Source: Candidatus Parvarchaeota archaeon (GTDB lineage: Archaea > Nanobdellota > Nanobdellia > Parvarchaeales > Parvarchaeaceae). Taken from it: a stretch of 44,685 nt of DNA. The position numbers and the translations under genes were made by a program. Positions 17,857 through 33,858 of the stretch are shown here, one piece after another; the first letter of the stretch is position 1, and every line of letters begins with the position of its first letter. The DNA lies in assembly GCA_023380585.1 (NCBI GenBank), contig JAMCRN010000014.1:1-44685 (forward strand). Direction: 5' to 3'. The notes under the pieces are model-generated. The model did no database searches. It saw nothing but the letters and a program-made list of their open reading frames with translations, and was not told where the DNA came from.

Positions 17857-17866
17857 TCACCTCCTC
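17857..17866 (-). promoter_or_regulatory. Shine-Dalgarno site that decides the DUF355 gene start
   Basis: Minus strand GAGGAGGTGA, overlapping the TGA of the giant surface protein and 5 nt before ATG 17851. Stronger than nearly all other sites in the window, where starts are mostly leaderless. Confidence 0.75.
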
Positions 17867-20800
17867 ATGTCGTTACGCAAGGAACTCTGACCCCAGTGAA
17901 TTTTATGCTCTGAGTGCCGCCGGCAGTCAAAGACCCTGAAGATGGAGACGGTCTGTATTCTGTAGTATCTGTCTGTCCTGAAGAACATGAAAGTAATACA
18001 ATGGGGACACTGAAACTATGTGTGCCTGCAGGGATGCTGGAGAAAGATATAGTGGAAGACGTAGAAGAGTGGGTTTGGAAATCATAGGTAACTGTCCAGC
18101 TATGACCACTTGGAACACCTGTTTCCTTGAAATATGACGTGCATGAGCCTGACCCGCTGAAACTTATCTTCTGTGTGGACCCTGTGCTTAAAGACCCTGA
18201 AGAAGGGGAAGGAGAGTATTTGCATCCTCCTTCTGACACCACAGGGACCAAGAAGCTGTATGTACCTTGTGGTTCTAAAAAGGTTATAGTCCCAGATAAG
18301 GAAGTCTTTTTGACTCCGTCATATGTCACACTCCACTGTGTGTTCAGAATGCCGGATTCGGAGAATACTGCAGAACAATCAGATGAGGCTGAAAATGCTA
18401 TATTTTGAGTGCCGCCGGCAGTCAAAGACCCTGAAGCCGGCGAAGCCACATAACATGTCCCAGAGACTACAAAGCCGGTAGGGACAGAGAATGAATAGCT
18501 GCCGGCAGGGGATTCAACGGTTATAGTAGAAGTGGAAGACAAATTTAATATAGAATCGTAAGTAACGTTCCACTGAGTGCCGGCAGGCAGGCCAGATTCT
18601 GTGAATGTAGTGACACAGCTCGTTGAGTTAGAAAAGTTTATGTTTACGGTTCCGGCGGCTGGGGCTACTCCGGAAACAGGCGAGGGAGTGTATACTGTAG
18701 TGCATCCTGATGAAGAATTCTGCGTATCGAGGACAGTAAAATCGTTGTTCCCATTAGACAACGTATATATCTGGGAGATATTTGAACGGACTATGTTCCC
18801 GCCGTAATCCACTCCCCACTCTGATACGCTCAGGACCTGCTGCGGTATGCCTGTTTCTATGAACGTAGTCGGCTTATATATCGAAAGGAATGAACTGACA
18901 GGGTTTTTTATCTGGTATATTCTTACCGGGACTATATTGTAGCTCTTTGGAGAGACAAGAAGAGTATAACTTATGTTCCATACAGTCGGCAGATTATACG
19001 CACGATAATATTGGGACCTCACGGAATAAGTAGAATTACCAGGACTCTGATATATACAGTTTATAACGTATCCATAAAGAAGGTTGTTGATCTGGTTACA
19101 GCCTTCATCGTAAGTTATATTGAAAGACCAGCTTTTCGTGCGACCAGGATATGTGGATGTAAATATCCTTGGAGAACCGTTAGGGCATGTTGAATTCAAT
19201 TGGACTGCATTAGAAACGCTGTCGAATACTTGGACGGATGGAGGAGAAGTGCTGCCGTTTTCGCTTATGCTGTAGAATTGTATAGCATGAAGGCCTGAAT
19301 TTAGCTGACCCAATGAGAAATATAGACCATTGGAGTACTCAGGTGGCAGTGATTGCCCTGAACAAAGTTGTCCTTCTCCTAGGTTGAATAAACCGTAATC
19401 CCCCTGGAACTTTGAGCCTAGACAGTTCTGAGACGTACCTCCCGTGAATATGTTCATGGCGTAATCGAAAACGCTCCCGTTGACAAAGCCAGGTATTCCG
19501 CTTATCCCGAAATAAGGGTTCTGTAAAAGTATCGTATTCAGCATGTCATACGGATAGAAAGAGGACTCCGACAGGGACTGTTTCTGGTTATTTGATATTA
19601 GCAAGTCTGCCGGATAAAGCTGCGTTACCAAGTTTATAAGCTCCTGTTGTGAGACTGACAGGCTTGTGAAGTAATCATCTCTGACAGGATTGACGAAATA
19701 CCCACTCGGTATCGATACGTTTAATGGCAAAGTAGTGGATATTATACCAAAACCTACACCTGTGTCTAAAGACGTCCTGTTGTCATACTGCACCACAAAT
19801 GAAGCGTTGGTGTTTAATGAAGCCGGATAATGATAAGCTATACATTTATTGGATAAAGTAGGTGGATAATAACCAGGTGATGAAAAGGAGTTGCAGCCTG
19901 TCGGCGTACTGCCGTACTGAGGGCCGCTTACTGTCACGTTATCAGTCGATGAAGTTATGTATATTGCAGTACCCTGGTTTACACAGGAGAAGTCAACGCC
20001 TGTACTTATCGTTCCTGATGCGTAGTTACTGGAACAGGACAATATGCTTCCTGAGTACCCTGTAGGGCAGCTGTAAGTCTGGTAGAACTGACTGTTTCCA
20101 TCTGGATTTGTTGTTATAGTTGGAGCTGTGACGTTGAATGCATCCCTTCCCGCTTCGCAGCCACCTACTTCTGGTATTCCGCTTGGGTTTATAGTATTGA
20201 AGGTCGTGCCAGGCTGCCATGTCCACCCTTCACTCTGCACATTTTTCTCTATGAGAGCAGAAGAATTCCCACACGTATAATTCGACAATAGATAGGTAGA
20301 TTCTGATTGTTTTGTGTTTATGCTGAAATCGCTTATTTCTATGCTGTCTGATTTGACCCCAGAAGCAGTTATAGAACATGTTCCTGTAAGATTGTTCTCG
20401 CTGGAAGATATTGGAGATGAGGAGAAAGAGGCTTCGCAGTTGCCGGATGTGCTGGGATATGTGCATGAAAAACTAGTATTAGTGTTTGACGATGAAACAA
20501 ACCATCCACTGCATGAAAACGAAGGTTGGAGCGGTTTTGTAGGAGCCGAACTGCTGTTGAAAAGATAGCTTGATAATGATACCGAGAGACTGCTTGCTTT
20601 TTTCGGAGAAGAGGAAGAAAACGACAATGTGCCGTTTGTAGGCGCGCATGAATATTGTATATTGTTGATATCTCCTACGAAACAGCCACCGCCTATAGGA
20701 TAATTCGTTCCTGTATACACTCCATTAGAGCTATAATTATAGTTGTTGGGGTTAGATTCTGGTATCGCTTCTATAGAATCATAAGAACCGGCTTGAGGCA

Positions 20801-23800
20801 TAACTGGGGGGGCTGGTTTTATGCAGGATGTATAGTTATATACGCTGTCGTTTATCGGACAGGAATCTATGAATGTCTGGTTAGATGGAAGATATAGTAT
20901 ACTATTTATCCCGATTGAAGCTGTATGGGAGACTATGTAATTCTCACTTGGGTTCGATGATTGGTATTGGACGTAGCTCCCATTCACGAACAATTCAGGT
21001 CCTTCCCCTGGTATAGGAGTCTGGCCTGAAATTGAGCAAGCATCATATAAAGTACCATCGTTTGCTGAGAAGTTGCCTGGCTTGTATAGAAAGCCTACGG
21101 TTTCACCGCTCTGTGCGTTGTAAAGATTCGACGAAGACGTAGCCGGAGAGGAGAATCCTTCGGTATACGTAGGGCTCCCTGAATACAAACAGTACTGCGG
21201 TCCTGCTTTCGGATTTATATCAGAGGAAGTTATGTTTACAAGGCTTTCTGTTCCAGATGTAGTGACAGTCGTAGTGCATGAATTGACAAACGATGGATTT
21301 GGTGCGGTCCCATTCTTTGTATATTCTTTTTGTACTGTCACCGTATTATAGCCCAGGTATCCTACAGAAATAGGAGGGCTTACACTGGCGACTTGCCCTG
21401 TGCTTGCTGCAGCGTATGAAAAGTTATCTATCAAGTTGTTCTGAATGTTGAAGTCTATCGCTGGCCCGGAAGTCTGTATCTGGTCTGTTATTACATTAGA
21501 ACCATCGTATACGCAATAGATACTTACGACGTTTTGGGAAGGACTAGTCGTTTGATAAAGCTTATTTGAATCATAATTTATGTTTCCAAACCCTGTTTCC
21601 TTCCATACCGCTGTCTGGGAGCTAGTATATGAAACATCGAAGCATGCGGCTACAGGGCCGTATCCTGATTCTGATATCACAGGGGATGATGAGGAAACAT
21701 TATTAAATAGCAGAGTGCCTATATCATTTCCATTTATATTAAAATCGCTGATACACGGACCAAAACCGGACTTACAATCCGATTCTATAGTCCCGGAATA
21801 GTTCGAATACGCGAACCCTACGCTGTAAGGGGTCTGGGATAGATTTATCCAGGATACAGAAACGTTCAATGGCGGCGGAGTCCCTTCCAATATCATATAA
21901 TTTGTTACTCCTGGTCTTGAAACAAATACGTAGCTACAGTCACCTTGTATGTTCGGGAGAGTCTGGAACGGCAATTCTGAATAAGGATACGGACTGTTGG
22001 TTACCACTTTTATACCCTGGCATGAATAAGTGCCCTTCGGCATTGAAAACACGACTGGCGCAGGTGGAGATGTATACGGAATGGAGAGATTTTCCTCCGC
22101 CGTCGGGGAATCGGCTGCGGCTGAAGGGTCTATTATTAGGAAAGCTCCTGCAGACGGAGAGGGTATGCTTGGAAGGAATATGTTCTTTGTTATTTCCTGG
22201 CCGCCGGATTCCTGCGTAAAGTTTATAGAATAATTCCCACCTGCTTCTATAGTACACTTCCCCGTATAATTCAAAAAGCCATCGCTTATTACTTGATTAT
22301 ATAAGCCGCAGCCTACGCTTGACTGACCGTATGCGCTTAAGTTAACGTCCTGCGAATTCAGCGGTAGATCGTCTTCTGTTATATATAGTTCATTATTGGC
22401 CTGGCTCTGGACTGCCTGGCCTAGGCCTATGTCTCCGCTTCCGAGATAAGCATTGTTAGAATCGTTGATGAAAACCGCCCTTATAGCCTGAAATGACTTA
22501 TTAAGATAACAGATTATGGTCCCGTTTTCGAGAAGATATTCTCCGTTTGAGACTTGCGAAGCACCGACGTCCGCTATAGGAGTGTTTGGTACGCTGTTTT
22601 CTATATTGCAGGAGAATGGAGTATCATTCAAATAATACAGGAAAAGTTTGGAATCTTTTAAATATCTTGTCGAAGGGGTAAACGAGAACAAAAGCGAAAA
22701 GCCTTTCCCTATGTTACCGCTTATATTCAGAGTAGTAGAATAAGTCCCGCTGCTGCTCGCTATGAAATTAGTTATATTGCTTGAGACAGGTGCCGTCCCG
22801 CCGTAAGTCTCATTTGACAGATTAAGATTTGAGTCATTGTACAGTTCGACATTGAACGGCCCGACCTTTGATGTTATCTTCATTACTGTATTGTTTATGA
22901 CTATGTTGCTTAGGCACCCGGAAGAGCTTATAGACGGCGACAAAGAGTCAGAAGACAGCACTCCTGATCCGTTCGTAGTACCGCTGAAACTGCAACTAGA
23001 CCCATCGCTTAAAGTAACAATTACGGGGTTACCAGAATACGTGCTTGTGTTCTGGAGATTTTGATATCCGACTATCTTTAACAGTGATCTATTGCTGAAG
23101 ATATTAGAGGCCTCCAATGCGAAACCGTAACTGCCTATAGGCACACCACTATATGTCAATGTCACATTCGAGCTTAACGCTGATGAAACGTGGCTAGTGT
23201 TTGACAATATATTATCTAAAGAGCCATTGCCCAGGTATACGAAAGCCTGTCTGTTTGATTCGGCAATAGAACTGTTTATTTCCGGTTTCTCTAATTGGAA
23301 TGACGCTATTGAACTTTGATACGCAGGAATATTGTTGAATGAAAGGCCTACGCTGTCGGAATATGGCATGAACAGAAGACCTCTCCACCTGGTTATTAGG
23401 ATGTTGTCAGGCGTAGAGTTGTAGTTGTAAAAAGCTTGTGTAGCATATTTTATGTTTGGAGAAGAAGCTGCCTGACTTAGCCAGAAGACACTGAAGTCAT
23501 TAAGGTTGTCCTGTGACGCAAAGCACGATACACTTGAGCCACTAAGAGGATTCGGTATCCTAGTCGGATGAGCTTTACATTGACCAGGAAGAGGATTCGT
23601 AGTGCAGTACGGATTCTTACTCTCATATGTAAGATTTACCAGTCCGCTTCCTGTCAAAGCCAATATATCAGTAGAAACTGTCGCCGTTATAGAGTTTTGG
23701 GTGTTGTTAGCGGCGGTCAATGATACGTTGAAATTATTGAAGTATACTGTGCTTGACTGGAAAGGACTTGTACTAAAGTTCGTATTTTCATAACTGACTA

Positions 23801-26528
23801 TGTACTGCCATGTCGGAGAAGGCATACCAGAAGGACTCAGCACCTCGTTGTTGTGGTAATACGAGCCGTTCCTCTGTCCAGATGCGACAAGAGGGTCCAC
23901 TTTGAACCCAGTGCCTATAGTGTTGGTTGGATTGTTAGATACTCCGCTGCCTGAAGCCCATGATACATTGAAGAGATTACCGAAGAAGACGCTCATATTG
24001 AATCTCCCGGCCAAAAGAGCCTCGAATAATGGCATCGGTATCTCTACTGTAAAAGTCGCAGTACCGTTCGGGATTATAAGAGGCAGTTGTGTATTATTCG
24101 AATCGGAATGAACCAAGAACGTATTTGCAGTCCTTATAACGTCTTTGCCTGACGACGGATAATACATCCAGAGGCCAAGAAGCGAATTGTTGTAAGGACC
24201 ATTCTCATAGTATGGAGCTGAGAACAGAGACTGTATCGGTATGGGATTAAGTGGAAATCCTGGCTTATAAACATACATGTCAGTCTGGAATGTCTTATTG
24301 TATCTTACTTCTATAACTCCGGTGGTTTCATGCTGTATCTGGCTTATAAAATCTGTGTACAAACCATAGTTCTGTATCTCAGAGTTCCCACTGTTTGAAG
24401 AATAGAACATCTGCGTAGCGTTCGTGTCTCTAAAAAGTACCACAAGATATGGGTCGTTTATATCCTGCGTACCAACGTTTTTGACAGTTATCACCAGCGA
24501 GGCATAAGAACTGTTAGAGCTGAAGCTCGGACAATCATATGTCTTTTGAAGGAATGTTGTGGAATTCGCCACTGGGTCAGAAAGGCTCTTCTTCCCGTCA
24601 AACAACCCACAGTACTGCCCCGCATTGTTTGCTATGAATATAGAATTTATCCATGCATCTGTCACTTTAGACGTTATCCCACTAGGCGTGCATGCCAGTC
24701 CCGAGGAGAATATACCGTCCTTGAAGTTAAGGAGATTATTATACTGCGGGGAAAAACAGTTAGAGCTGTTGAAGAAAGCGTTGCACTTTCCTATGTCAGA
24801 CGTGTAGTTCTCGGCAGAAGTCGGAGGCACTATCCTTGTATATGAAGGAGGCGTATAGACCCCAGTGACAGTGCTAAAATTCTCCCCGAAGAAACACATG
24901 CTGTCCAAAGCATCCTGCGTAAAGGCATTAAGTTGGCTAGAGTCGTTTGCAGGAGAGAACGGCTGAAGGTCAAGGTAATTAAACTGCAGGTTCTCTGATT
25001 CAGTAGTTGTGGACGGAGAAGTCCTTGTAACTGGAGCGGTTGTCGTGCCCATATTTCCATCCCAGTAGCGCTGGTACGAAACGTGATTTACAGAATTTGG
25101 GTCTTCGAATGTGCAGTTTGAGTAAAAAATGTTCGGAGCAGCTTCTAATCCGCAAAAAGGAAATATGACTCCTGTCTTGAAGTAATCATATAAAAACAAC
25201 CCGTATGTGCCGGTCTGCACTTCTGGATAATAACCTGCGTTTAGATTAGGCAATGTATATCCGCTGACAGAACTGCTCTGTGTCATTTCATTGAATTTTT
25301 GAGTGGTGTCTAATCCGTAATAACCGCTGCCTTGAGGCGGAAGAAAACTCATGACGGAGGTATTGCTTATGTACACGCCGACAGGAGAAGAGCTTGAAGA
25401 ATCGAGCTGCATGTCTATAGACGTATTGAAGAAGGATGAGACGTTTATGTACTGGGAATCTCCAGCATTTCCCGCAGGGAACTTGGCATATCCGATTGCA
25501 GGATTTGTATGCGGTGTCTCCTGTGATAACAATTGCAGTTTATAGACTAAAAATGCGTCATTGGACCATACAGGCCATCCTGCGGACGTAGGCCCAGAAA
25601 GACTGATTATATACGTCGCAAGATAACCCGGATGATCAAATGAAGCGAGGCCGATCGAAGGAGTGAAACCACTAAGCGACTCTATGTAGTATAAACTGTC
25701 AAAGAGAGAATTGTAGTCAGAGGACAGTGGAAACGAACTTCCACATGAAATAGCAGGTATTATTATGGAACTGTCTTTTGCGGCCTGTATTGGTGTATGC
25801 GATGATGTGTACCCGCCGGTATTAAAACTATTATTTATGGCATAGTAATAATTTCCTCCACTCCCAGTATATTTGAACAATGTATTATTTGCACTCCAAT
25901 TAAAGAAGTTTGGGTACGGTGCTGCAGGAGGTAGACAAGTGTATGGTGTCCCGGGAGCCAAAGGCGAGACTACTGCTGATATTATGTTTGGGAAGTCATA
26001 TGTCCCCGAGGGGGGAATCGGATCGTAGCATGTCAATGGTGGTGAAGATTCTGCTACAGGATAGCCGATATATCCGACGACATAGCTGTAATTCTTTGTC
26101 TCGATCTTCCCTGGTTTTTCGCATGGATACGGGATGCCATTGAAGTAACACGTTCCTATATACCCAGAACCTATGTACTTGTCAGAGGAGCAGTAAAATT
26201 GATTCGAATTTTGATACTGAGAGATGTTCCCATACGTAAATTTTTCTTCCAGTTGTAGCTGATTGGAATTAAAGCCGGGGCCTTGGGTTATCTCGTTTTC
26301 CGTTATTAGACTTGAGACTGGCGGAGGAGTAGAACTAAAAGAAGATATCCTACTTGCATCTGTTTTCGGGGAGCTGTATACCTGGAAGAACGGTGCGCTG
26401 GCAGTTATTTGTTGAGCCACATGAGCTTCAGCGCCGGTCCCGCCAGTTAGGATAGCCGTCATCCGGATAGAGAGCCCTAACACAAGGACTAATGCTACAA
26501 AGATCAAAAGCACATCGACTCTATCCAT
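17865..26528 (-). CDS. Giant exported surface protein with C-terminal thermopsin-like repeats (2887 aa)
   Basis: The largest gene in the window. N-terminus MDRVDVLLIFVALVLVLGLS is a TM/signal anchor; there is no C-terminal TM. The rest is Ser/Thr/Asn/Pro/Tyr-rich with very many N-x-S/T sites and scattered Cys, typical of a glycosylated S-layer or stalk-like exoprotein. The last 334 residues hold four tandem units of about 80 aa, at about 2554, 2638, 2718 and 2796, each with an (F/Y)-E-(T/S)-G-(I/L/V) start, W-x-V-x-Y-(D/G), a G(T/S)(Y/H)SF-VP strand and PSPxSGSLTAGGTQ-like end. This pattern occurs after thermopsin-type proteases and in Thermoplasmata surface proteins; no protease domain is recognised here. 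The chain ends at CVTT, the first residues of another unit. Strong Shine-Dalgarno (26532-26541) and own TATA (26571-26578). Confidence 0.85.
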   Translation of the reverse strand: MDRVDVLLIFVALVLVLGLSIRMTAILTGGTGAEAHVAQQITASAPFFQVYSSPKTDASRISSFSSTPPPVSSLITENEITQGPGFNSNQLQLEEKFTYGNISQYQNSNQFYCSSDKYIGSGYIGTCYFNGIPYPCEKPGKIETKNYSYVVGYIGYPVAESSPPLTCYDPIPPSGTYDFPNIISAVVSPLAPGTPYTCLPPAAPYPNFFNWSANNTLFKYTGSGGNYYYAINNSFNTGGYTSSHTPIQAAKDSSIIIPAISCGSSFPLSSDYNSLFDSLYYIESLSGFTPSIGLASFDHPGYLATYIISLSGPTSAGWPVWSNDAFLVYKLQLLSQETPHTNPAIGYAKFPAGNAGDSQYINVSSFFNTSIDMQLDSSSSSPVGVYISNTSVMSFLPPQGSGYYGLDTTQKFNEMTQSSSVSGYTLPNLNAGYYPEVQTGTYGLFLYDYFKTGVIFPFCGLEAAPNIFYSNCTFEDPNSVNHVSYQRYWDGNMGTTTAPVTRTSPSTTTESENLQFNYLDLQPFSPANDSSQLNAFTQDALDSMCFFGENFSTVTGVYTPPSYTRIVPPTSAENYTSDIGKCNAFFNSSNCFSPQYNNLLNFKDGIFSSGLACTPSGITSKVTDAWINSIFIANNAGQYCGLFDGKKSLSDPVANSTTFLQKTYDCPSFSSNSSYASLVITVKNVGTQDINDPYLVVLFRDTNATQMFYSSNSGNSEIQNYGLYTDFISQIQHETTGVIEVRYNKTFQTDMYVYKPGFPLNPIPIQSLFSAPYYENGPYNNSLLGLWMYYPSSGKDVIRTANTFLVHSDSNNTQLPLIIPNGTATFTVEIPMPLFEALLAGRFNMSVFFGNLFNVSWASGSGVSNNPTNTIGTGFKVDPLVASGQRNGSYYHNNEVLSPSGMPSPTWQYIVSYENTNFSTSPFQSSTVYFNNFNVSLTAANNTQNSITATVSTDILALTGSGLVNLTYESKNPYCTTNPLPGQCKAHPTRIPNPLSGSSVSCFASQDNLNDFSVFWLSQAASSPNIKYATQAFYNYNSTPDNILITRWRGLLFMPYSDSVGLSFNNIPAYQSSIASFQLEKPEINSSIAESNRQAFVYLGNGSLDNILSNTSHVSSALSSNVTLTYSGVPIGSYGFALEASNIFSNRSLLKIVGYQNLQNTSTYSGNPVIVTLSDGSSCSFSGTTNGSGVLSSDSLSPSISSSGCLSNIVINNTVMKITSKVGPFNVELYNDSNLNLSNETYGGTAPVSSNITNFIASSSGTYSTTLNISGNIGKGFSLLFSFTPSTRYLKDSKLFLYYLNDTPFSCNIENSVPNTPIADVGASQVSNGEYLLENGTIICYLNKSFQAIRAVFINDSNNAYLGSGDIGLGQAVQSQANNELYITEDDLPLNSQDVNLSAYGQSSVGCGLYNQVISDGFLNYTGKCTIEAGGNYSINFTQESGGQEITKNIFLPSIPSPSAGAFLIIDPSAAADSPTAEENLSIPYTSPPAPVVFSMPKGTYSCQGIKVVTNSPYPYSELPFQTLPNIQGDCSYVFVSRPGVTNYMILEGTPPPLNVSVSWINLSQTPYSVGFAYSNYSGTIESDCKSGFGPCISDFNINGNDIGTLLFNNVSSSSPVISESGYGPVAACFDVSYTSSQTAVWKETGFGNINYDSNKLYQTTSPSQNVVSIYCVYDGSNVITDQIQTSGPAIDFNIQNNLIDNFSYAAASTGQVASVSPPISVGYLGYNTVTVQKEYTKNGTAPNPSFVNSCTTTVTTSGTESLVNITSSDINPKAGPQYCLYSGSPTYTEGFSSPATSSSNLYNAQSGETVGFLYKPGNFSANDGTLYDACSISGQTPIPGEGPELFVNGSYVQYQSSNPSENYIVSHTASIGINSILYLPSNQTFIDSCPINDSVYNYTSCIKPAPPVMPQAGSYDSIEAIPESNPNNYNYSSNGVYTGTNYPIGGGCFVGDINNIQYSCAPTNGTLSFSSSSPKKASSLSVSLSSYLFNSSSAPTKPLQPSFSCSGWFVSSSNTNTSFSCTYPSTSGNCEASFSSSPISSSENNLTGTCSITASGVKSDSIEISDFSINTKQSESTYLLSNYTCGNSSALIEKNVQSEGWTWQPGTTFNTINPSGIPEVGGCEAGRDAFNVTAPTITTNPDGNSQFYQTYSCPTGYSGSILSCSSNYASGTISTGVDFSCVNQGTAIYITSSTDNVTVSGPQYGSTPTGCNSFSSPGYYPPTLSNKCIAYHYPASLNTNASFVVQYDNRTSLDTGVGFGIISTTLPLNVSIPSGYFVNPVRDDYFTSLSVSQQELINLVTQLYPADLLISNNQKQSLSESSFYPYDMLNTILLQNPYFGISGIPGFVNGSVFDYAMNIFTGGTSQNCLGSKFQGDYGLFNLGEGQLCSGQSLPPEYSNGLYFSLGQLNSGLHAIQFYSISENGSTSPPSVQVFDSVSNAVQLNSTCPNGSPRIFTSTYPGRTKSWSFNITYDEGCNQINNLLYGYVINCIYQSPGNSTYSVRSQYYRAYNLPTVWNISYTLLVSPKSYNIVPVRIYQIKNPVSSFLSIYKPTTFIETGIPQQVLSVSEWGVDYGGNIVRSNISQIYTLSNGNNDFTVLDTQNSSSGCTTVYTPSPVSGVAPAAGTVNINFSNSTSCVTTFTESGLPAGTQWNVTYDSILNLSSTSTITVESPAGSYSFSVPTGFVVSGTCYVASPASGSLTAGGTQNIAFSASSDCSAVFSESGILNTQWSVTYDGVKKTSLSGTITFLEPQGTYSFLVPVVSEGGCKYSPSPSSGSLSTGSTQKISFSGSGSCTSYFKETGVPSGHSWTVTYDFQTHSSTSSTISFSSIPAGTHSFSVPIVLLSCSSGQTDTTEYRPSPSSGSLTAGGTQSIKFTGVRVPCVTT
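17911..17941. repeat. 31-bp exact direct repeat, copy 1
   Basis: Identical to 18406-18436, 495 bp away. Encodes SGSLTAGGTQ on the minus strand at the end of the last thermopsin-like unit. Identity at wobble positions suggests recent duplication or gene conversion. Confidence 0.85.
18406..18436. repeat. 31-bp exact direct repeat, copy 2
   Basis: Second copy of the element at 17911-17941, at the end of the second repeat unit. The third unit between them differs. Confidence 0.85.
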
Positions 26529-26592: not shown

Positions 26593-29500
26593 TCAAGTCA
26601 CCGAAGACCAGCTGTAAAACGGGCCGGACACTCCTATTATATTAAAATCAGGATACAGCGGATTAAAGTTATGATAGAGCGAATCAAGACTGGGTTGCGG
26701 AGGGTACGGAGAATAAGTCGCGTTTAGAATGGTTATTTTAAGGGACGGACTAGTAGTGATGCATGCGAATTGGGAATAGTACTTGGATAACGTAGAATTA
26801 TATACATATGGCGGCTGTGGCTCGAAGTTAGTCAGATTAAGAGAGCCGTCAGAATATGAAGGAGCGTATTTATGCTGGTCTTTTGGGTAGAAAAAGTTGA
26901 AAGCAGTGTTATGAAGAGACGAAGACGAAAAGAATACGGGGAAGACTCCAAGGCCATTGTCTGCCATAGCTCCTGAGTAAGCTGCGCCGTTACCGTATAC
27001 TATGTATACGTAGGATGGCATGTTCTTTGATAAGTTTATCCAAAGGACACCACCATTCTGCATAGGAGTCTGGTTCCACCAGTATAGCTGCTGCACGGAA
27101 CCCGAAGAATAGACTCCGAATACCTTCAAAAATCCATTAGAGAGGGAGCCGAAATTGAAATCTTCGTTAAGTATTACCTCAAGTTGATAGGCGCTAGACG
27201 GTTTGACGCTGCTGTTGATCACTAGTTCATTGTAATAAGTGCCTGCGTCTGTTGACAGTCCAAAAGAAGAGTTAAGGTCTTTATTAAGATTAGAAGCTGG
27301 GTAAGCGGGATATGATATTTTTACAGGATTGTATCCAGGTATCAGATCGTGCACAAACATATAACTGATCATGTCCTCCGCTGTACCGGCTCCGGTCGAA
27401 AAGCCGATAAAACCTGGAGCATTTAAAGGCAGACTGGATGCTAGGTCTCCATTTATACCTGTCTGGTTGATCGAGTTCACGGAGAAATACATTTCACAAG
27501 ATGATGAAGACATGCAGTACTTGTTCAACTGTAAATTCTGGATATGATTTGTAACTGCTCCGCTGTCCGACGCTGATAACAATACCTCTCCGTAATCATT
27601 AGAATAATTATATATTGCATTTGTATCGCCAGATGCAGGAAGCTTTACTATATAGAACGGGTCTGAAAGTGAGCTGTATCTGCTCAAAAGAAGATCGAAG
27701 GACGGAGAAGGGCCGTTTATCTTCACTCCTAAGTCTAAACTGAAGTTCTGACCGACAGGTATTCCACTACCGTTTATGGCTGCGATCGTCCAATTCCGAT
27801 ATGACTCTTTATTCGGCAGAGAGCCGCCACCATATACAGAAATGAACTCATAATTAAGATTGGATGAAGTAAAGTTATCTCCATCTACTACGACATAGTT
27901 CGGGCATGAATTGTCACGTGTTATCCAATTTTGGTACGAGAACCCGTCAAACTTATAATACGGACAGAAATAATATGATGAGCCGCTGACCTTACGACAA
28001 TATTCTCCGTTGAAAGCAGACGCGTTTATAGTCTGCTCTACTGCTTGGTTTGTGGTCTCCAGACTTGAGATGCATGTGCTGTTAAGAAAGATCTTGGATG
28101 TGACTGGGGCGCAGTTTATATAGGCAGTACCGTTCTCCAGAAAAGCCTGATTGAATCCTGGGTACCCTGTGGTGTAAGGAGTGCCTTGCAACCCGCAATT
28201 TTCGGAGGGAGTTAGATTTAGACCGTTTTGGTATGCGAAATTTATGGATATCGGTATGCCCAAAAGCTCGCTTTGCTGCGCGTTGTTTACGGACCTCGTG
28301 CTTACTGAGAAATTATAGCTTACAGAAGAATTGTATTTGGAGTAATCACTGCACGACGGAGCTTCTTCTGCGTGGACTGAGAGATTAAGAACGTTGATGT
28401 TTATAGGAGAACCTGATAAAAACGACAACTCTATCGGCATCTGATGGTTAAACAGGTTATTCAGATCAGACTTTATAGTACTGGACAGAAGGTCCCTGCA
28501 GAAGACTAGATCAGATGAGTTGTATGAACAATTGTATATGTACGTGCCGTCATAGTACTGCCTTACCCTGCTCAACTGTTGTATGATATAGTTCTCTCCG
28601 TTCGGAGAACCTAAACTAAGCAATAAGGAGGAATACCAGTCATATTTTGGCTGGCCGTTTACCGAGACTGTTCTAAGGTTGACACCGTGCACCACATACG
28701 TCAAATAGTCATATAGAGAGTACTGTGGGAATCCGGTTATGTTAGTATCGCCTAACGGAAAGCTCTGGTTGACGAAGGCAGCGCCTAGCTGCATTACCTG
28801 GCTTAAATAATTATTATCGGAAAAGTAGCCAGAAAGACTGAGGCAGTTGCGGAGAGTGAAGGCAGACTCATCATATGACACGCAGATCTGCGGATTGTAA
28901 AGCGGAAACATGGAAACTGACACGTATAGGGGTTTATTGTTTGGGAAGAGAAGGTCCTCAGTACCGGCCTGCTGGAATTGGTTTATTAAGTACTTGTAAT
29001 AGATAAAATTCGGCTGCAGAGGCAAAACCGCAAAGCTTTCCGGCGATATATCAAATATGCCGTTCACAGTAGCCGTCACACTGAAAGTGTAGCTTGTGCC
29101 ATCGAAGACGAACACGGAATTATTGGTCAATGATATCTGCGCCTGCTCCCCTGCAGCGATATCCTGCTTTTCCGCTTGTATAAGAGTGTACACGTTTTGT
29201 GACTGAAGAGGAGTAAGGTAGAAAGCAGTGCCACTTGAGGAGGTATTCGTGTATATTATCCCTGTTTCTCCGTCTGGAAAAGTCACAAGTGCGTATTGCG
29301 AATTCGGGGATTCCCCCGAACCTGCGAAGAAAGCGCTTACAGCTGTTGGTTCCGATATTACTCCTGATATAAGGTCCGCCTCCGGCAGGAAACTGAAAGA
29401 TTTTCCCTCCAATAGAAAATTCACGCCAGTAGGTCCGGAGAAGGATATCAAACTGCCGCTGCCGCAGCTTGGTCCTGTGGAGTTGCACACTGTCACTGAG

Positions 29501-30036
29501 TCATTGGTCCTGTTGTACTCTATAAGGTAAGTGTAGTTTAGAAAAGGCGCGGAAAAATGCGTTGTGAACAGTCCTGTAGGTGATTTTGACATATTGAACT
29601 CAAGGGAAGAAGTTATATCAGAGCTGTTTTCTCCGATGATGGAGAATTGGCTCTGGTTTAGTATATCTGTCAAACCATAAAGTATCTCCTGGTTATCCGG
29701 TAAGCATGTCTGGCCGCTTATCGTATGCCAATAATAGACTTTTGCGACAGGTATGAAGGGCAGTCTTGTAGTAGCGTTTATGTAGCCGCAGTTTATGCTG
29801 GTTGGTGTAAGAGACAGACCGTCGAATAATTGGGCTTTGTCAAACAGATAATGAGATTGCTGGAGAATGTAGTCTTTCAATGCAAGTGTCTGGTAGATGC
29901 TCTTCTGTGCCGTTATGCCTATCTGAGAGCTCATGCTTATGTTCCCTATGTATGTAAAAGCGTTAAGAACGACGAAGATGACTGCTGCTATCATGCCTAT
30001 GACAACGATTATGTTCGCCTGTCCTCTCCTATCCAT
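26593..30036 (-). CDS. Large exported pseudopilin-like protein with DUF2341-like domain (1147 aa)
   Basis: N-terminus MDRRGQANIIVVIGMIAAVIFVVLNAF has a short basic leader with RRGQ before a hydrophobic helix, matching class III prepilin signals; cleavage before Gln is predicted. The long exterior is rich in Ser, Asn, Tyr and N-x-S/T sites. At about residues 935-1045 there is a DUF2341-like unit: YNELVINSSVKPSSAYQLEV..., VFGVYSSGS-QQLYWWNQ and the typical YVYIVYGNGAA strand; DUF2341 occurs in archaeal and bacterial surface proteins and may bind carbohydrate or protein. Starts 1 nt after the 195-aa gene stop. It has no catalytic motif that I can see and is the fourth gene of the surface operon. 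Confidence 0.8.
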   Translation of the reverse strand: MDRRGQANIIVVIGMIAAVIFVVLNAFTYIGNISMSSQIGITAQKSIYQTLALKDYILQQSHYLFDKAQLFDGLSLTPTSINCGYINATTRLPFIPVAKVYYWHTISGQTCLPDNQEILYGLTDILNQSQFSIIGENSSDITSSLEFNMSKSPTGLFTTHFSAPFLNYTYLIEYNRTNDSVTVCNSTGPSCGSGSLISFSGPTGVNFLLEGKSFSFLPEADLISGVISEPTAVSAFFAGSGESPNSQYALVTFPDGETGIIYTNTSSSGTAFYLTPLQSQNVYTLIQAEKQDIAAGEQAQISLTNNSVFVFDGTSYTFSVTATVNGIFDISPESFAVLPLQPNFIYYKYLINQFQQAGTEDLLFPNNKPLYVSVSMFPLYNPQICVSYDESAFTLRNCLSLSGYFSDNNYLSQVMQLGAAFVNQSFPLGDTNITGFPQYSLYDYLTYVVHGVNLRTVSVNGQPKYDWYSSLLLSLGSPNGENYIIQQLSRVRQYYDGTYIYNCSYNSSDLVFCRDLLSSTIKSDLNNLFNHQMPIELSFLSGSPININVLNLSVHAEEAPSCSDYSKYNSSVSYNFSVSTRSVNNAQQSELLGIPISINFAYQNGLNLTPSENCGLQGTPYTTGYPGFNQAFLENGTAYINCAPVTSKIFLNSTCISSLETTNQAVEQTINASAFNGEYCRKVSGSSYYFCPYYKFDGFSYQNWITRDNSCPNYVVVDGDNFTSSNLNYEFISVYGGGSLPNKESYRNWTIAAINGSGIPVGQNFSLDLGVKINGPSPSFDLLLSRYSSLSDPFYIVKLPASGDTNAIYNYSNDYGEVLLSASDSGAVTNHIQNLQLNKYCMSSSSCEMYFSVNSINQTGINGDLASSLPLNAPGFIGFSTGAGTAEDMISYMFVHDLIPGYNPVKISYPAYPASNLNKDLNSSFGLSTDAGTYYNELVINSSVKPSSAYQLEVILNEDFNFGSLSNGFLKVFGVYSSGSVQQLYWWNQTPMQNGGVLWINLSKNMPSYVYIVYGNGAAYSGAMADNGLGVFPVFFSSSSLHNTAFNFFYPKDQHKYAPSYSDGSLNLTNFEPQPPYVYNSTLSKYYSQFACITTSPSLKITILNATYSPYPPQPSLDSLYHNFNPLYPDFNIIGVSGPFYSWSSVT

Positions 30037-30037
30037 A

Positions 30038-30625
30038 TCAAGTCATGACTCCGAATATAGTTTTGGGGGATGATGGATCCGCTGGATTATATACCTGCAA
30101 AGAGCAGACTGCCGTAGGATTTGAGACGCTTGTAGGCACTTGGTTCATAAATACCTCCATACCGATAGCATCCAATGTAAGGGAGTTCGCCGATTTTATG
30201 CTGTCAAATTGGCTCAGAGAGAAGGAATTGAAATATGATATGAAATCATTGAACAGCGAAGAGGAGTTGGATAGGGAGCTTGAAAGAAACGTATAGCTTT
30301 CTGAACAGGATGAGCCGCAATCCAGAGAGAATGACTGAGCTTTACCGGAAACAGCCGTAAGATACTGTGATGGTTGGGTCAGCTCTAGTTGAGTCAGCGT
30401 AGCCAAAGTGTGTACATAGTAAGTGCCATAAAGCGAATCCAGAGCCAGATTGCATGCGTCTATCGTCGGCTGCTGAGTGACTGCCGTCAGTATATGAGCA
30501 GTAGAACTCTGCAGGAAAAATGCCGCCAATATCGACAGAAAAACGGCAGCCAACGGTGCCAGTAGAAGGTCCAGGAAGGTCAGCTGGCCTTTCTTCGATC
30601 TTTTAAGTGAATGGTGATATTCCAT
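30038..30625 (-). CDS. Small pseudopilin-like exported protein (195 aa)
   Basis: N-terminus SLKRSKKGQLTFLDLLLAPL, with a basic leader and KKGQ preceding a long hydrophobic helix (to about residue 42); this looks like a class III prepilin signal with Gln at +1. The exterior is about 150 aa, Ser-rich, with four Cys (DACNLAL, SLDCGSSCSES, AVCSLQVY) that may form disulphides. The start overlaps the end of the 268-aa gene by 23 nt and the stop is 1 nt from the next start, so it is in the same operon. In size and topology it resembles minor pilins such as GspH/I/J, without sequence proof. Confidence 0.75.
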   Translation of the reverse strand: MEYHHSLKRSKKGQLTFLDLLLAPLAAVFLSILAAFFLQSSTAHILTAVTQQPTIDACNLALDSLYGTYYVHTLATLTQLELTQPSQYLTAVSGKAQSFSLDCGSSCSESYTFLSSSLSNSSSLFNDFISYFNSFSLSQFDSIKSANSLTLDAIGMEVFMNQVPTSVSNPTAVCSLQVYNPADPSSPKTIFGVMT

Positions 30626-31409
30626 AGTTAACTGTTACGTAGAGCAGACCGGTGTTTGTAAACATTGGCTGGTCTTCTTCGTTAACAAACTGTATAGTCA
30701 CTGGGAGCTTTTCGGTATATGTCGTTTCGCCGTAAAATAGGTCCGCCGCAGAATATTGCGGCGCTATACTGGAAGGCGTATTCGAACCAAAAGCTAGTAT
30801 AAGATTTACGTTCAGCAGGCCTGCTGTAGCTACCCCTATGGCCGTGCTTATTGCCACGCTTGCTGGGATGGCCACATATTCGGCATCAGTTGCCAGATGG
30901 GCCATGTAATTCCTTACCTCTAAAAATTTGCTCCCATAATTTAATTGATTGTAATTAGAAAGGAATAGAGAACCTGTACCCCCGAGATTTGATGGATCCT
31001 GTGTATCGACCAATCTTGCAGATACGCCAGTTACAGCAGCGAACGACCCTGTGAGTGCTGGAATGTTAGTGGCACCTCCGAAATACATATATTGTATACA
31101 AGAGAGGAAACTGTCTTCGGAGAACTTCCCCAAGTTTATAGTTCCTGGCTCAGTATCATATACTGAATATATAGGTCCACCGGGCGCAGAAGACGAATTG
31201 TCATAGTAGTTCATCGAAAGCTTGTAAGCAAAGCAATTTGGGGACGATACCATCCTTATCCCCAATGAAGACGCGACGGAAGCCGCATTAGCGTACAAAG
31301 CCACGCTGTTTATCTGTGAAACACTGAAAGAAAGTACTATCAGCAACAAGGCAAACGATATAATAAGCACTCCTGTGTTCACAAAAGCCATCAGCTGCAT
31401 CAGTGCCAT
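30603..31409 (-). CDS. Exported pilin-like protein, CFAY motif family (268 aa)
   Basis: N-terminal hydrophobic helix at about residues 10-33 (VNTGVLIISFALLLIVLSF) followed by a helix, SVALYANAASVASSLGIRM. The next block SSPNCFAYK ... GTINLGKF ... FLSCIQY forms a pattern (SPNC-AY, then P-x-I-x-L-x-KF, then a Cys) that I recall in small secreted pilus-type proteins of archaea; this recall is not a database result. The helix lacks the GQ motif, so it may be held by a normal signal anchor. It ends with beta strands YVTVNYGISPFT. Starts 1 nt after the 815-aa gene. Confidence 0.72.
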   Translation of the reverse strand: MALMQLMAFVNTGVLIISFALLLIVLSFSVSQINSVALYANAASVASSLGIRMVSSPNCFAYKLSMNYYDNSSSAPGGPIYSVYDTEPGTINLGKFSEDSFLSCIQYMYFGGATNIPALTGSFAAVTGVSARLVDTQDPSNLGGTGSLFLSNYNQLNYGSKFLEVRNYMAHLATDAEYVAIPASVAISTAIGVATAGLLNVNLILAFGSNTPSSIAPQYSAADLFYGETTYTEKLPVTIQFVNEEDQPMFTNTGLLYVTVNYGISPFT

Positions 31410-31410
31410 A

Positions 31411-33858
31411 TCAACCTACAGAGTAGCCCTTATCCCCGAGCGTTATTGTCGCGTTCACGAACTGCCCGCCTTGAGAATTATAGTTATTGGGATATATACC
31501 AAACAACAGATTATCACTTAAAAACGTTAGACCTATGCTTGTAACTATCCTATGCAACCGCAAAGAAAACGAAGGTATTTTTGTGACTAGGAAAGTCACG
31601 TTTGCATAATCTGTTGGGTAAAAAGACAAGTTATCCGTGGCATAATTCAGCGTGATGGGGGACAAAAGCTGATTTAACAATGACGATTGTAGCGATATCT
31701 GGAACTTCGGGGCCTGCTGTTTTATTATGCCTGCGAACAAAGACGCAATCGGAGAGTCCATACCTGTTTTGAACAGATATAATGGAGAAGGCCCTGTTAT
31801 AAAGTTTTGAGCTGATTTTAGCACCGGATTGAAATCTAAAGCCGTCGTAAGCTCATTGGGGTAGTCCATTATCGGTATCGAGAATCCGATTTCTGACTGA
31901 TTGTTTATGAAAAAACCGTTCGGCGCCAGCTGATTCGGTATGTTTAGAGCGGTCGTAGACGAACCAGTATATGTCGTAGGGAAATTAAGGTTGTAAGTGC
32001 CGTTAGTCAATGCTGTGAGATTGATACAGGATACCGGAGAACCGTATTGTGTGAAGTACTTATTGCTTCCTCCTCCTGCTACGGTTGAGTATTTAGAGAC
32101 TGGATAGCCGTAACCGTTTATAATAAGACGAAACAGGCATAGACTTGCGTCTGAAGAAGAATTCGATATTCCTATCGCATATTCTGATGGGACAAAAAAG
32201 CTTACCTTAGAGACTAAAGCTTTTGAGTTTATTATTTGATCGAAGACGCTCGTTATTGTTTTAGGAAATATTGGATCGTTGGTCTGGCACATTGTATTAT
32301 ATATGCCCTGATTTATGCTGAAAGACATGGAGCCGTTTCCTGCAGGATATATTATAGACTGCAGGTTTGTCCCTGGCTCTGTGCTTGTCTCTGCGATGCC
32401 ACAGGAATCAGACATGTCTGCTATTATAGGCGATTCTGCTACTGTAGGACGGCTGCTGGACTGGCCGTTTACATATACCTCCCCACCATATCCGACAAAG
32501 TAAGTCCCGATGTTTGTTATAACGTTTAGCTTGTCAAAGATGTTCACCATAGATGTAGCGTATCCAAACGTGGATGCAAAATTGCTGACCGTACCGCCTA
32601 CACTGCTATAAGCCTTCGGATTTGTGACCTGTGGCAGATTTCCCAGGCATGCTGCGGTCCTTGCATACGTTAACAGACCTGACTCTGTTGCGAAAGCTAT
32701 ATATCCAAGCAGAGGATCTCCTTTCCCATTTACTTTTACATTTCCTATGAATGAATCTGGGGAAGACAAAGCAGATGGGGCTTCTACACCGCTGTAGGGC
32801 GTTGAATACTGATTTGTATTTGGACTGGGCGATTGACTTAATTCGCCTACAAGGTCTGCCTGCACGCCTTCCTGCTTGGCGATAGATGTTTGGAGATTAG
32901 ATTTCTGTAACCCCGCTGGCAAAGATGATGCTAAGCCAGCAGTGGCCTGTATCTGGGCGATGTGTTGCGTTATGAAAAAAACTCCGCTGTATTGCGGCAG
33001 AAGAGGTTCTCCCGTCAGAAAGACGCTTGCTGCTGTCGATACCGCGGAGGAATCTTTGACTATCGATGAAACCGTATTTACTATTGGAGTCGCAAGCCAG
33101 AACAGAAGTAGAGGCACACCGAAGTTCTGGAATATCCTGCTTTTTAAAATGCGCTTTGCTAACCTTAGACCTAAAGGCAGACCACCATTTTGAGACTGAG
33201 CGACCTCATCTAAGTTAGTAGGTAAACCATTGTCAACAGAAGGCGACGACGTCGAAGAATGATCAAGCTCAGATACCGCGTCTTCCGAAACGCCTTCTTC
33301 TGCGAGCAGGGAAGCGCCTGCTTTTGGTATTAGCTGACCGCCTTCGTATATAAGTTCTCCGTTTGAAAACTTGTCTGCAGTGTCAAAAAATGATGCTATG
33401 GACTCTGGTATGTCTCCGGCTATGGAAGCTGCATCCTCCCCGCCTGTTAGGGCGGTAGAAACGGCGCTGCTCCCTTTGAATATCTTCCCTATCGGAAACG
33501 TGCCGATCATAACGCACAAAGCCCCGCTGAAAATGTTCTTTCCACTGTCTAGAGTCGGCCCTGAAGCATAAGAAACATTATATATTTTAGACCCTCCCGC
33601 ACATGTATACGCATCTATAGCCGAAGACCAGCTGCATAATGATGTGTTTCCAGCGATTGTGACAGACATCGTGGAAGGGGCTTCATAGAGAGCGTTCTTT
33701 GCCGCACCTATGTTATTCGCGAAGATCTGCAGCGAATTCGCGCCGTTCTGAAAGAATATCCCCTGTAGCTGGGCGAAGTATATGCCTACTAAAAGAAAAC
33801 CTGCAGAGAGAATAAGCACTGCGATTCCTATTACTATCTGTCCTCTCTCCATAGACAT
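31411..33858 (-). CDS. Exported pseudopilin-like protein, first of the surface operon (815 aa)
   Basis: N-terminus MSMERGQIVIGIAVLILSAG shows RGQ directly before a hydrophobic helix, a class III prepilin-like signal. After residue 100 the chain is Ser/Gly/Ala-rich; a second hydrophobic segment lies at about 240-265 (FGVPLLLFWLATPIVNTVSS), so the protein may cross the membrane twice or contain a buried helix, which is unusual for a pilin. The C-terminal half is N-x-S/T rich and beta-like, with several Cys. No enzymatic motif is seen. It is the promoter-proximal gene: AT-rich boxes lie at 33873-33895, and the next gene follows after 1 nt. Confidence 0.78.
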   Translation of the reverse strand: MSMERGQIVIGIAVLILSAGFLLVGIYFAQLQGIFFQNGANSLQIFANNIGAAKNALYEAPSTMSVTIAGNTSLCSWSSAIDAYTCAGGSKIYNVSYASGPTLDSGKNIFSGALCVMIGTFPIGKIFKGSSAVSTALTGGEDAASIAGDIPESIASFFDTADKFSNGELIYEGGQLIPKAGASLLAEEGVSEDAVSELDHSSTSSPSVDNGLPTNLDEVAQSQNGGLPLGLRLAKRILKSRIFQNFGVPLLLFWLATPIVNTVSSIVKDSSAVSTAASVFLTGEPLLPQYSGVFFITQHIAQIQATAGLASSLPAGLQKSNLQTSIAKQEGVQADLVGELSQSPSPNTNQYSTPYSGVEAPSALSSPDSFIGNVKVNGKGDPLLGYIAFATESGLLTYARTAACLGNLPQVTNPKAYSSVGGTVSNFASTFGYATSMVNIFDKLNVITNIGTYFVGYGGEVYVNGQSSSRPTVAESPIIADMSDSCGIAETSTEPGTNLQSIIYPAGNGSMSFSINQGIYNTMCQTNDPIFPKTITSVFDQIINSKALVSKVSFFVPSEYAIGISNSSSDASLCLFRLIINGYGYPVSKYSTVAGGGSNKYFTQYGSPVSCINLTALTNGTYNLNFPTTYTGSSTTALNIPNQLAPNGFFINNQSEIGFSIPIMDYPNELTTALDFNPVLKSAQNFITGPSPLYLFKTGMDSPIASLFAGIIKQQAPKFQISLQSSLLNQLLSPITLNYATDNLSFYPTDYANVTFLVTKIPSFSLRLHRIVTSIGLTFLSDNLLFGIYPNNYNSQGGQFVNATITLGDKGYSVG

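What the first reader, a model, noticed from the sequence alone, without database searches (positions are those of the whole stretch)
26593..33858. (R/K)GQ class III-like signals on proteins up to 1147 aa
Archaeal prepilin peptidases cut before Gln in KGQ-type signals, normally on pilins of 60-200 aa. Here the same motif precedes an 815-aa and an 1147-aa protein as well as a 195-aa one. This implies that very large ectodomains are processed and possibly polymerised by the pilus route.
Basis: partly seen in the sequence, partly recalled or inferred. Interest (0 to 1): 0.55.

Follow-up and report, generated by a model that had tools for sequence, protein, structure and literature searches.

The report
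Giant pilin-like subunits in Parvarchaeota
Three neighbouring proteins of a tiny archaeon, two of them very large, carry the membrane-export tag of pilus subunits, and they sit in a gene cluster that in related tiny archaea lies near a pilus-building motor; they are probably the sticky, non-repeating parts of a pilus rather than its shaft.

Summary
Window proteins of 815, 195 and 1147 aa (- strand) begin ..ERGQ..KKGQ and ..RRGQ, each followed at once by a long hydrophobic stretch. It is not chance: Gln at +1 is kept in 20/20, 21/21 and 21/21 aligned orthologues. In a sample of the same genome, Gln follows [KR]+small residue in 13 of 22 cases but [KR]+other in 1 of 60. The genome has one A24 prepilin peptidase and two T2SSE ATPases over the cut-offs.

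The three genes belong to a five-gene cluster (815-268-195-1147-giant) of Parvarchaeales, with homologues, by profile and gene order, in distant DPANN genomes. In five of six of those examined, it lies 9-14 kb from orthologues of this genome's own C26 ATPase and platform protein. So the cluster is probably the pilin part of a type IV filament system, split up in this lineage. The 1147-aa protein contains a predicted lectin-like fold and a weak DUF2341-like stretch.

Processing is therefore likely; a shaft polymerised from giant subunits is not. Minor or tip "modular pilins" fit best. Large class III proteins and DPANN pilin islands are already in print; this is a new variant with better-defined anatomy. 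No cleavage or filament was shown.

The parts
31411..33858 (-). 815-aa class III-leader protein, gene 1 of the cluster
   Evidence: homologues in 27 of 32 genomes of the order
33841..33858 (-). its leader MSMERG; Gln +1 at 33838-33840; hydrophobic stretch to about residue 34
   Evidence: sequence; Gln in 20 of 20 aligned sequences; hydrophobic segment 4-34
30603..31409 (-). 268-aa protein, gene 2: N-terminal hydrophobic stretch, no charged leader in Parvarchaeales; 10 of 12 distant homologues read by eye have a K/R + small-residue leader
   Evidence: profile link to distant homologues 98.75%, E 1.5e-16 over 100 columns
30038..30625 (-). 195-aa pilin-sized class III-leader protein, gene 3
   Evidence: homologues in 25 of 32 genomes of the order
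30587..30625 (-). its leader (13 aa, ..SKKG); Gln +1 at 30584-30586; acid at +6 (Asp19), not +5
26593..30036 (-). 1147-aa class III-leader protein, gene 4
   Evidence: present in 20 of 20 regions of the order that were fetched because they hold the 815 gene
30022..30036 (-). its leader MDRRG; Gln +1 at 30019-30021; hydrophobic stretch to about residue 35
27340..27792 (-). predicted ConA/galectin/CBM66-like beta-sandwich (residues 749-899 of the 1147-aa protein)
   Evidence: AF2 model, VIA-align top Z 15.1, rmsd 2.4, 131 aligned
26932..27090 (-). DUF2341-like stretch (residues 983-1035), below the Pfam cut-off
   Evidence: E 0.011, 16.6 bits against cut-off 23.4
17865..26528 (-). 2887-aa giant surface protein, gene 5: N-terminal hydrophobic segment without the Gln motif, variable N-terminus
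   Evidence: homologue at this place in 18 of 20 regions, the other two contigs end inside gene 4

Best explanation
The 815-, 195- and 1147-aa proteins are type IV pilin-like subunits ('modular pilins') of a DPANN type IV filament. Inferred mechanism: each is inserted by Sec with its charged leader inside; the single A24 peptidase (contig C28) cuts between the small residue and Gln; the hydrophobic helix is then pulled from the membrane by the C26 ATPase and its platform protein. With the 268-aa protein they form a few-copy minor-pilin complex, probably at the tip, that carries large beta-rich surface modules (one of lectin fold in the 1147-aa protein) and works with the giant encoded next to it, much as bacterial minor pilins carry PilY1. 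The shaft would be made of small pilins encoded elsewhere. Shown here: conservation of the motif, presence of peptidase, ATPases and platforms, cluster conservation, and linkage of distant cluster homologues to the orthologous ATPase and platform. Inferred: cleavage, assembly, tip position, adhesion.
For: Gln +1 invariant in all three families while -1 and -2 vary. Gln goes with a small -1 residue: 13 of 22 against 1 of 60; in relatives with the cluster genes left out, 7 of 15 against 1 of 59, the seven alike by eye. One A24 peptidase over the cut-off, both Asp motifs aligned with FlaK 3S0X, E 3.4e-4; A24 in 30 of 32 genomes of the order, 29 over the cut-off, T2SSE in 30 of 32. Genes 815-268-195-1147 in this order in 20 of 20 regions fetched around the 815 gene. 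Positional homologues in distant genomes: hhalign 94.0, 98.75, 93.1 and 99.2% (over 80, 100, 70 and 534 columns) against 0.1-10.3% for four mismatched pairs. In 5 of 6 upstream stretches, orthologues of the C26 ATPase (50-52% identity; 40 and 54% in two blocks in G338) and platform (29-40%) lie 8.7-14.2 kb from the 815-type gene. Other class III-like proteins of this genome carry grafted domains: Laminin_G_3 and sub-threshold DUF2341 (1006 aa), NHL propeller (1107 aa), DUF2341 over the cut-off (443 aa). The 195-aa model has one helix from residue 15, just after Gln14.
Against: No experiment. In M. maripaludis FlaK does not process +1 Gln precursors, only the larger EppA does (PMC4371748, passages); the one peptidase found here is nearer FlaK in size and was not compared with EppA. 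No acid at +5: the 195 family has it at +6, the 815 and 1147 families have none there. The 268-aa protein lacks a leader in the order. In this genome the cluster (C14), ATPase with platform (C26) and peptidase (C28) lie apart. Five of 32 genomes gave no 815 hit; of these G018 (estimated 100% complete), G010 and G028 have peptidase and ATPases. Profile support for distant homology rests mainly on the N-terminal 70-100 residues in three of four families, and some outgroup alignments include the nearer G316 or G102. One of the five linked distant clusters (G338) has no 1147-type gene. Structure models are poor (pTM 0.46 and 0.36); residues 1-84 of the 1147 model are nearly all below pLDDT 50; the 195 model matched no pilin. 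Outside the order +1 is often not Gln.
Confidence: 0.66

Rival explanations
1. Bindosome-like surface complex: the leaders are cut by the A24 peptidase and the helices bundle in or just above the membrane into a binding or adhesion assembly, but no filament is extended.
For: Large class III proteins that are not pilins are in print (substrate-binding proteins, proteases; PMC2910488, passages). Both ATPases have sub-threshold NCBIfam hits to the bindosome ATPase.
Against: Those hits are far below the cut-off (145 and 79 against 1000 bits) and weaker than those to the archaellum motor and TadA. Several distant clusters carry small tandem [KR][AS]QGLP-type pilin-like ORFs beside the large ones.
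Confidence: 0.17
2. Giant subunits polymerise as the shaft itself, giving thick decorated filaments.
For: The three have the helix and leader needed; no small [KR]GQ pilin other than the 195-aa protein is encoded next to them in the window.
Against: A candidate small pilin exists elsewhere in the genome (145 aa MKRGQAVLELL.., L122). Homologues of the 1147-aa protein outside the order range from 422 to 1083 aa with low identity, odd for a shaft lattice. Domains of lectin type suggest few-copy adhesins.
Confidence: 0.06
3. Uncleaved N-terminal signal anchors; the basic residues only set topology.
For: The hydrophobic stretches are long; no cleavage data.
Against: Does not explain an invariant Gln next to a small residue in three families, nor the 13 of 22 against 1 of 60 contrast. 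In-cluster control: the giant's N-terminus conserves no column at 90%.
Confidence: 0.09
4. Ordinary Sec signal peptides cut by signal peptidase I after the hydrophobic stretch.
For: Secreted beta-rich ectodomains; some fifth-gene products of distant clusters show SPI-like ends such as ..VFAAC (by eye).
Against: In the 815 and 1147 families the sequence just after the hydrophobic stretch is well conserved (e.g. FFQNGA.SLQ.FA), not a variable cut site. No signal-peptide predictor was run.
Confidence: 0.02

Closest known systems
Archaeal clade 1 type IV pili (Methanococci, Methanobacteria, Thermococci) with large DUF2341 proteins (PMC4858521, passages and section 9 read)
   Same: Class III signals, several minor pilins in one locus, large proteins with DUF2341 proposed there as PilY-like tip adhesins; +1 Gln in the Epd pilins (PMC4371748, passages)
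   Different: No Pfam or NCBIfam family over cut-off in the cluster proteins; Glu +5 missing; DUF2341 only below cut-off in the 1147-aa protein
DPANN pilin islands of Makarova 2019 (PMC6393860, passages and section 6 read; figure not held)
   Same: Dark-matter genes with signal peptides beside FliI/TadC and surface proteins in DPANN, proposed there as diverse pilins; perhaps the same kind of locus
   Different: The text names no families, order, leader rule or giant subunits; here four families are linked across genomes by profile and order
Bacterial minor-pilin tip complexes with PilC/PilY1, and modular pilins PilB/PilC of Streptococcus sanguinis (PMC10191384 passages; PMC8179133 search listing)
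   Same: Small set of minor pilins plus a large non-pilin surface protein; functional domains grafted on a pilin helix
   Different: Archaeal, larger grafts; homology to them not tested
Kil/Tad pilus tips of Myxococcus, KilL-M-N (PMC12075869, passages)
   Same: Tip made of three pilin-like proteins, one of them large
   Different: Bacterial; homology not tested
EppA/DUF361 QXSXEXXXL proteins of Methanococcus (PMC2910488 and PMC4371748, passages)
   Same: Gln at +1 after KG or RA
   Different: Ser +3 and Glu +5 pattern absent; one A24 peptidase found instead of two

Membership tests
Type IV filament (minor) pilin | Class III leader: charged n-region, small -1, long hydrophobic stretch directly after the cut | tested here: met
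   for the 815-, 195- and 1147-aa proteins; not met by the 268-aa protein in this order
Type IV filament (minor) pilin | Actual cleavage by prepilin peptidase | not testable with these tools
   needs N-terminal proteomics or co-expression
Type IV filament (minor) pilin | Glu at +5 (common in pilins; PMC10191384 says the capping minor pilin lacks it) | tested here: not met
   815 and 1147 families no acid at +5; 195 family Asp at +6
Type IV filament (minor) pilin | Pilin fold (helix plus beta-sheet head) | tested here: inconclusive
   195-aa model: helix 15-69 and three C-terminal strands, pTM 0.46; best row Z 5.0, top rows not pilins
Type IV filament (minor) pilin | Genetic link to assembly ATPase and platform | tested here: met
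   for homologues in 5 of 6 distant genomes examined; not linked in the window genome
EppA substrates (DUF361/Class_IIIsignal) | QXSXEXXXL motif / Pfam PF04021 (accession recalled) | tested here: not met
   no such Pfam hit at E up to 1; no Ser3/Glu5
DUF2341 large pilus-locus proteins | DUF2341 over the curated cut-off | tested here: not met
   1147-aa protein 16.6 against 23.4 bits; met by the 443-aa KKAQ protein of the same genome, 26.0 bits
A24 prepilin peptidase (C28 protein) | Catalytic Asp pair (D..RE and GGGD) | tested here: met
PilC/PilY1 (for the 2887-aa giant) | PilY1-type domain | tested here: inconclusive
   no Pfam family at E up to 1 for the whole protein; no profile or fold comparison made; analogy by position only

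The most novel reading that the evidence does not exclude
The four pilin-like genes plus the giant encode the variable contact tip of a DPANN-wide type IV filament, a host-recognition organelle: a lectin-fold modular pilin and a giant adhesin presented together on a filament that lets these tiny archaea reach and bind their archaeal hosts. The same families would be the 'missing pilins' of DPANN genomes.
Probability: 0.3. Interest if true: 0.75.

Novelty: new variant of a known kind. Interest (0 to 1): 0.52.

Why it matters
Many DPANN archaea are thought to depend on contact with hosts, and ARMAN cells were reported joined to Thermoplasmatales by pili-like structures (PMC5864196, passage). Yet authors report pilus ATPases and peptidases with no pilins annotated (new Nanohaloarchaeota, and Undinarchaeota as cited there; PMC9563170, passage). 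This work gives four linked protein families, a leader rule (small residue + Gln in this order) and a link to one ATPase and platform, so candidate pilins and adhesins can be found and tested. It also raises a peptidase question: one A24 enzyme over the cut-off in each of 29 genomes of an order whose putative substrates carry +1 Gln, which Methanococcus FlaK refuses.

Tried and rejected
Tried without result: Pfam and NCBIfam on the cluster proteins (none over cut-off; the giant was given to Pfam only); PDB sequence profiles of the 1147, 195 and 815 families (0 hits each); genome-contig scan with the single 815-aa protein (58 pattern matches, no relative); PDB fold comparison of the 195-aa model (31 of 668 chains at Z 2 or more, best row 5.0, top rows dynein light chains; poor model, so inconclusive); paper search for the SQSALEY motif (four unrelated papers); a typed regex for the giant's ESGLP repeats in two 1147-aa orthologues (none found, although BLAST links the tails at E 4.7e-6 and 1.7e-5).

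Considered and rejected: that the 815-aa protein is clearly polytopic (two further segments reach only KD 1.6-1.7); that absence of the peptidase explains all genomes without the cluster (G010, G018 and G028 have it).

Caveats on counts: the 20 regions of the order were chosen because they hold the 815 gene. The leader regex takes the last match and misassigns some rows, so the outside-order leader counts in the report were read by eye. Of the 18 non-order genomes other than G316 hit, 11 were fetched (plus G335); the seven weakest (G056, G084, G166, G205, G267, G304, G329) were not read. The 87 of 371 count includes many weak hits (E 1e-14 to 1e-3) that were not inspected. Statements that something was not found in print rest in an open-licence library only.
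Full report
1. Observation. The three ORFs exist at the given coordinates on the - strand. The 815-aa protein starts MSMERGQ, the 195-aa protein has ..SKKGQ and the 1147-aa protein starts MDRRGQ; a long hydrophobic stretch includes or follows the Gln in each (segments 4-34, 13-43 and 4-35). The 268-aa protein between them and the 2887-aa protein after them have an N-terminal hydrophobic segment but no such motif.

2. More than chance. Orthologues were taken from 20 regions of the same order, chosen because they hold the 815 gene. All 20 hold the 815, 268, 195 and 1147 families in this order (in L082 the 815 gene is cut by the contig start); the giant follows in 18, and in the other two the contig ends inside the 1147-aa gene. 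With the window, the Gln is invariant in 20 of 20 (L082 dropped), 21 of 21 and 21 of 21 sequences; in the first 70 residues of the giant (19 sequences) no column reaches 90%. Both Gln codons occur in each family; -1 is A16 T3 G1 in the 815 family, G19 A2 in the 195 family, G20 A1 in the 1147 family. In 225,055 bases of the window's genome (window plus ten stretches, 236 ORFs), [KR][GAST]X before a hydrophobic 18-mer has X=Q in 13 of 22 cases, [KR][other]X in 1 of 60 (Fisher p=1.4e-8). With the three proteins of the finding removed this is 10 of 19, of which four share one family and one looks false by eye. In relatives without the cluster genes: 7 of 15 against 1 of 59, the seven alike by eye. 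Background Gln is 2.7%.

3. Organism. The named loci with this cluster are metagenome genomes titled Candidatus Parvarchaeota, Nanoarchaeota archaeon, Candidatus Rehaiarchaeum or archaeon (26 loci); I take the window as Parvarchaeales (DPANN). The genome has 701,970 bases in 31 contigs and is estimated 83% complete.

4. Machinery in the genome. One A24 peptidase on contig C28 (276 aa) aligns with FlaK 3S0X at both Asp motifs; it was not compared with EppA. Two [KR][AS]Q proteins (303 and 322 aa) lie one gene away from it. Two T2SSE ATPases are over the cut-off: C9 (505 aa, with two T2SSF genes) and C26 (746 aa, with a 703-aa partner that has a sub-threshold T2SSF hit, and a subtilase). In the order, A24 occurs in 30 of 32 genomes (29 over the cut-off) and T2SSE in 30 of 32. 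The 815 family is found in 27 of 32 and the 195 family in 25 of 32. G018, estimated 100% complete, has peptidase and ATPases but no hit to any of the four families.

5. Reach of the cluster. A profile of the 1147 family finds 14 of 371 genomes of the phylum sample, 13 of the order and G316. With G316 added, the 815 profile finds 17 of 371 and the 268 profile 33 of 371; with more distant members the 268 profile finds 87 of 371, in 63 of 259 genera, weak hits unchecked. G316 and twelve further regions around hits were read. The order 815-268-195-1147 recurs in L165, L218, L220-L224, L227 and L228 (in L218 the first and in L224 the last gene is cut by a contig end). L219 shows only the 815-type gene before the contig ends; L225 and L229 lack the 1147-type gene; L226 lacks the 195- and 1147-types and has its large secreted proteins on the other side. 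The fifth gene is variable: 875 to over 2300 aa in some, 176-291 aa in L220, L221 and L227, two genes in L222.

6. Homology at matching positions is supported by hhalign: 94.0% E 1.4e-7 (80 columns), 98.75% E 1.5e-16 (100 columns), 93.1% E 3.1e-7 (70 columns), 99.2% E 2.4e-19 (534 columns); four mismatched pairs give 1.1, 10.3, 0.1 and 2.5%. For three families this covers mainly the N-terminal part, and the outgroup alignments of the 268, 195 and 1147 types include the nearer genomes G102 and/or G316. Sizes outside the order: 815-type 357-821 aa, 195-type 134-211, 1147-type 422-1083.

7. Leaders outside the order, read by eye: [KR]+G/A/S before the hydrophobic stretch in 7 of 12 (815-type), 10 of 12 (268-type), 11 of 11 (195-type) and 8 of 9 (1147-type). 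+1 is Gln in many but A, S, T, V, Y or E in others. So most distant 268-type proteins have a leader, while Parvarchaeales and G316 have none; there residue 5 from Met1 is Glu in 16, Gln in 4 and Asp in 1 of 21 sequences of the order. Several distant loci also carry two or more small ORFs of the form [KRN][AS]QGLPxxxIV (L223, L225, L227, L228; two related ones in L229), plausible shaft pilins.

8. Link to an assembly machine. Upstream stretches of six distant clusters were fetched. In five (G173, G193, G253, G338, G065) an orthologue of the window genome's C26 ATPase (50-52% identity over about 745 aa; two blocks of 40 and 54% in G338) and of its 703-aa partner (29-40%) lies 8.7-14.2 kb from the 815-type gene on the same strand; in G062 none was found in the stretch taken. 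G338 is one of those without an 1147-type gene. Three small membrane proteins on contig C28, about 14 kb from the peptidase, match proteins upstream of that ATPase in L231-L234. The window genome thus has parts of one kind of locus on contigs C14, C26 and C28.

9. What the large parts are. The AF2 model of the 1147-aa protein is poor overall (pLDDT 57.9, pTM 0.36; residues 1-84 below 50), but residues 749-899 (ten-residue means mostly 69-83, some 52-58) match galectins and CBM66 (Z 15.1, rmsd 2.4, 131 aligned for 7trn_B; Z 14.8, rmsd 2.2, 133 aligned for 4azz_A). This is a common fold; sugar binding is not shown. A DUF2341-like stretch follows at 983-1035, below cut-off. A similar pair occurs in a 1006-aa KRSQSALEYL protein of the genome (Laminin_G_3 5.4e-17, DUF2341 5e-4 and below cut-off); other [KR][AS]Q proteins carry an NHL propeller (1107 aa) or DUF2341 over the cut-off (443 aa). 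Surface domains behind a class III-like helix are thus frequent in this genome.

10. Mechanism. Best reading: Sec insertion, cut before Gln by the C28 peptidase, extraction by the C26 ATPase and platform, assembly of 815, 268, 195 and 1147 as a few-copy minor-pilin set, probably at the tip, with the giant. A review says conserved minor pilins form a tip complex capped by a subunit lacking Glu5, that PilC/PilY1 sits there, and that modular pilins carry grafted adhesive domains (PMC10191384, passages). The Kil/Tad tips also contain a large pilin (PMC12075869, passages). A transposon screen in M. maripaludis lists insertions in a DUF2341 gene near epd genes among those with transformation defects (PMC10133366, table passage). 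What is shown is sequence conservation and gene linkage; cleavage, assembly, tip position and binding are inferred. The proteins work like minor pilins on this reading; formal membership stays open, since Glu +5 is absent and the fold test was inconclusive.

11. Prior knowledge. Large class III proteins (PMC2910488, passages), the DUF2341 tip-adhesin proposal (PMC4858521, section 9) and DPANN pilin islands (PMC6393860, section 6) are in print. I found no description of these four linked families or of 815-1147-aa class III subunits in DPANN in the searches, seen as listings plus the passages cited, in open-licence papers only. A Parvarchaeales paper reports pilA-type pilin genes in all its genomes (PMC10134863, passage).

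12. Verdict. New variant of a known kind, interest about 0.5.

Noticed in passing
window 30603-31409 and orthologues: The 268-aa family has no leader in Parvarchaeales and begins like a mature pilin (MALxE..), with Glu/Gln/Asp at residue 5, while most distant homologues have a KSQ/KAQ/RAA leader.
   Followed up: partly
window 11688-12680; L113:6938-9958; L114:9290-10666; L118:6865-7995; L121:13337-16660: A second class III-like family, [KR]SQSALEYM.TYGWAILII and alike, 330-1107 aa, with different domains behind the same helix (LamG with weak DUF2341, NHL propeller).
   Followed up: partly
L117:1248-4698 (G000 contig C28): The prepilin peptidase gene is divergent from a gene that looks like DphB (by eye), followed by two [KR][AS]Q proteins (303 and 322 aa); similar arrangement in G018 (L166).
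   Followed up: partly
L115:1954-8731 (G000 contig C26): Pilus-type ATPase and platform genes sit directly next to a predicted secreted subtilase (806 aa).
   Followed up: no
L223, L225, L227, L228, L229: Small ORFs of about 100-190 aa, often in tandem, beginning [KRN][AS]QGLPxxxIV or alike, likely shaft pilins of the DPANN system.
   Followed up: no
window 17865-26528, C-terminal part; L080:6833-10543; L082:2328-6017: The giant's tail, with ESG..W.VTYD-type repeats, is similar by BLAST to the tails of the 1147-aa orthologues in two relatives (E 4.7e-6, 1.7e-5), suggesting module exchange; a strict regex did not find the repeats there.
   Followed up: partly
L122:13618-17680 (G000 contig C5): A further run of N-terminal-helix proteins (493, 298, 172 aa) and a 145-aa MKRGQAVLELL pilin candidate; the 493-aa one is similar to a protein in the G173 pilus locus (E about 1e-6).
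   Followed up: partly
L165, L220, L221, L222, L223, L226, L227: The distant clusters lie near genes that look like FKBP-type isomerase, Alba, FtsZ or NusG/L11 (names judged by eye from N-termini), a housekeeping setting.
   Followed up: no
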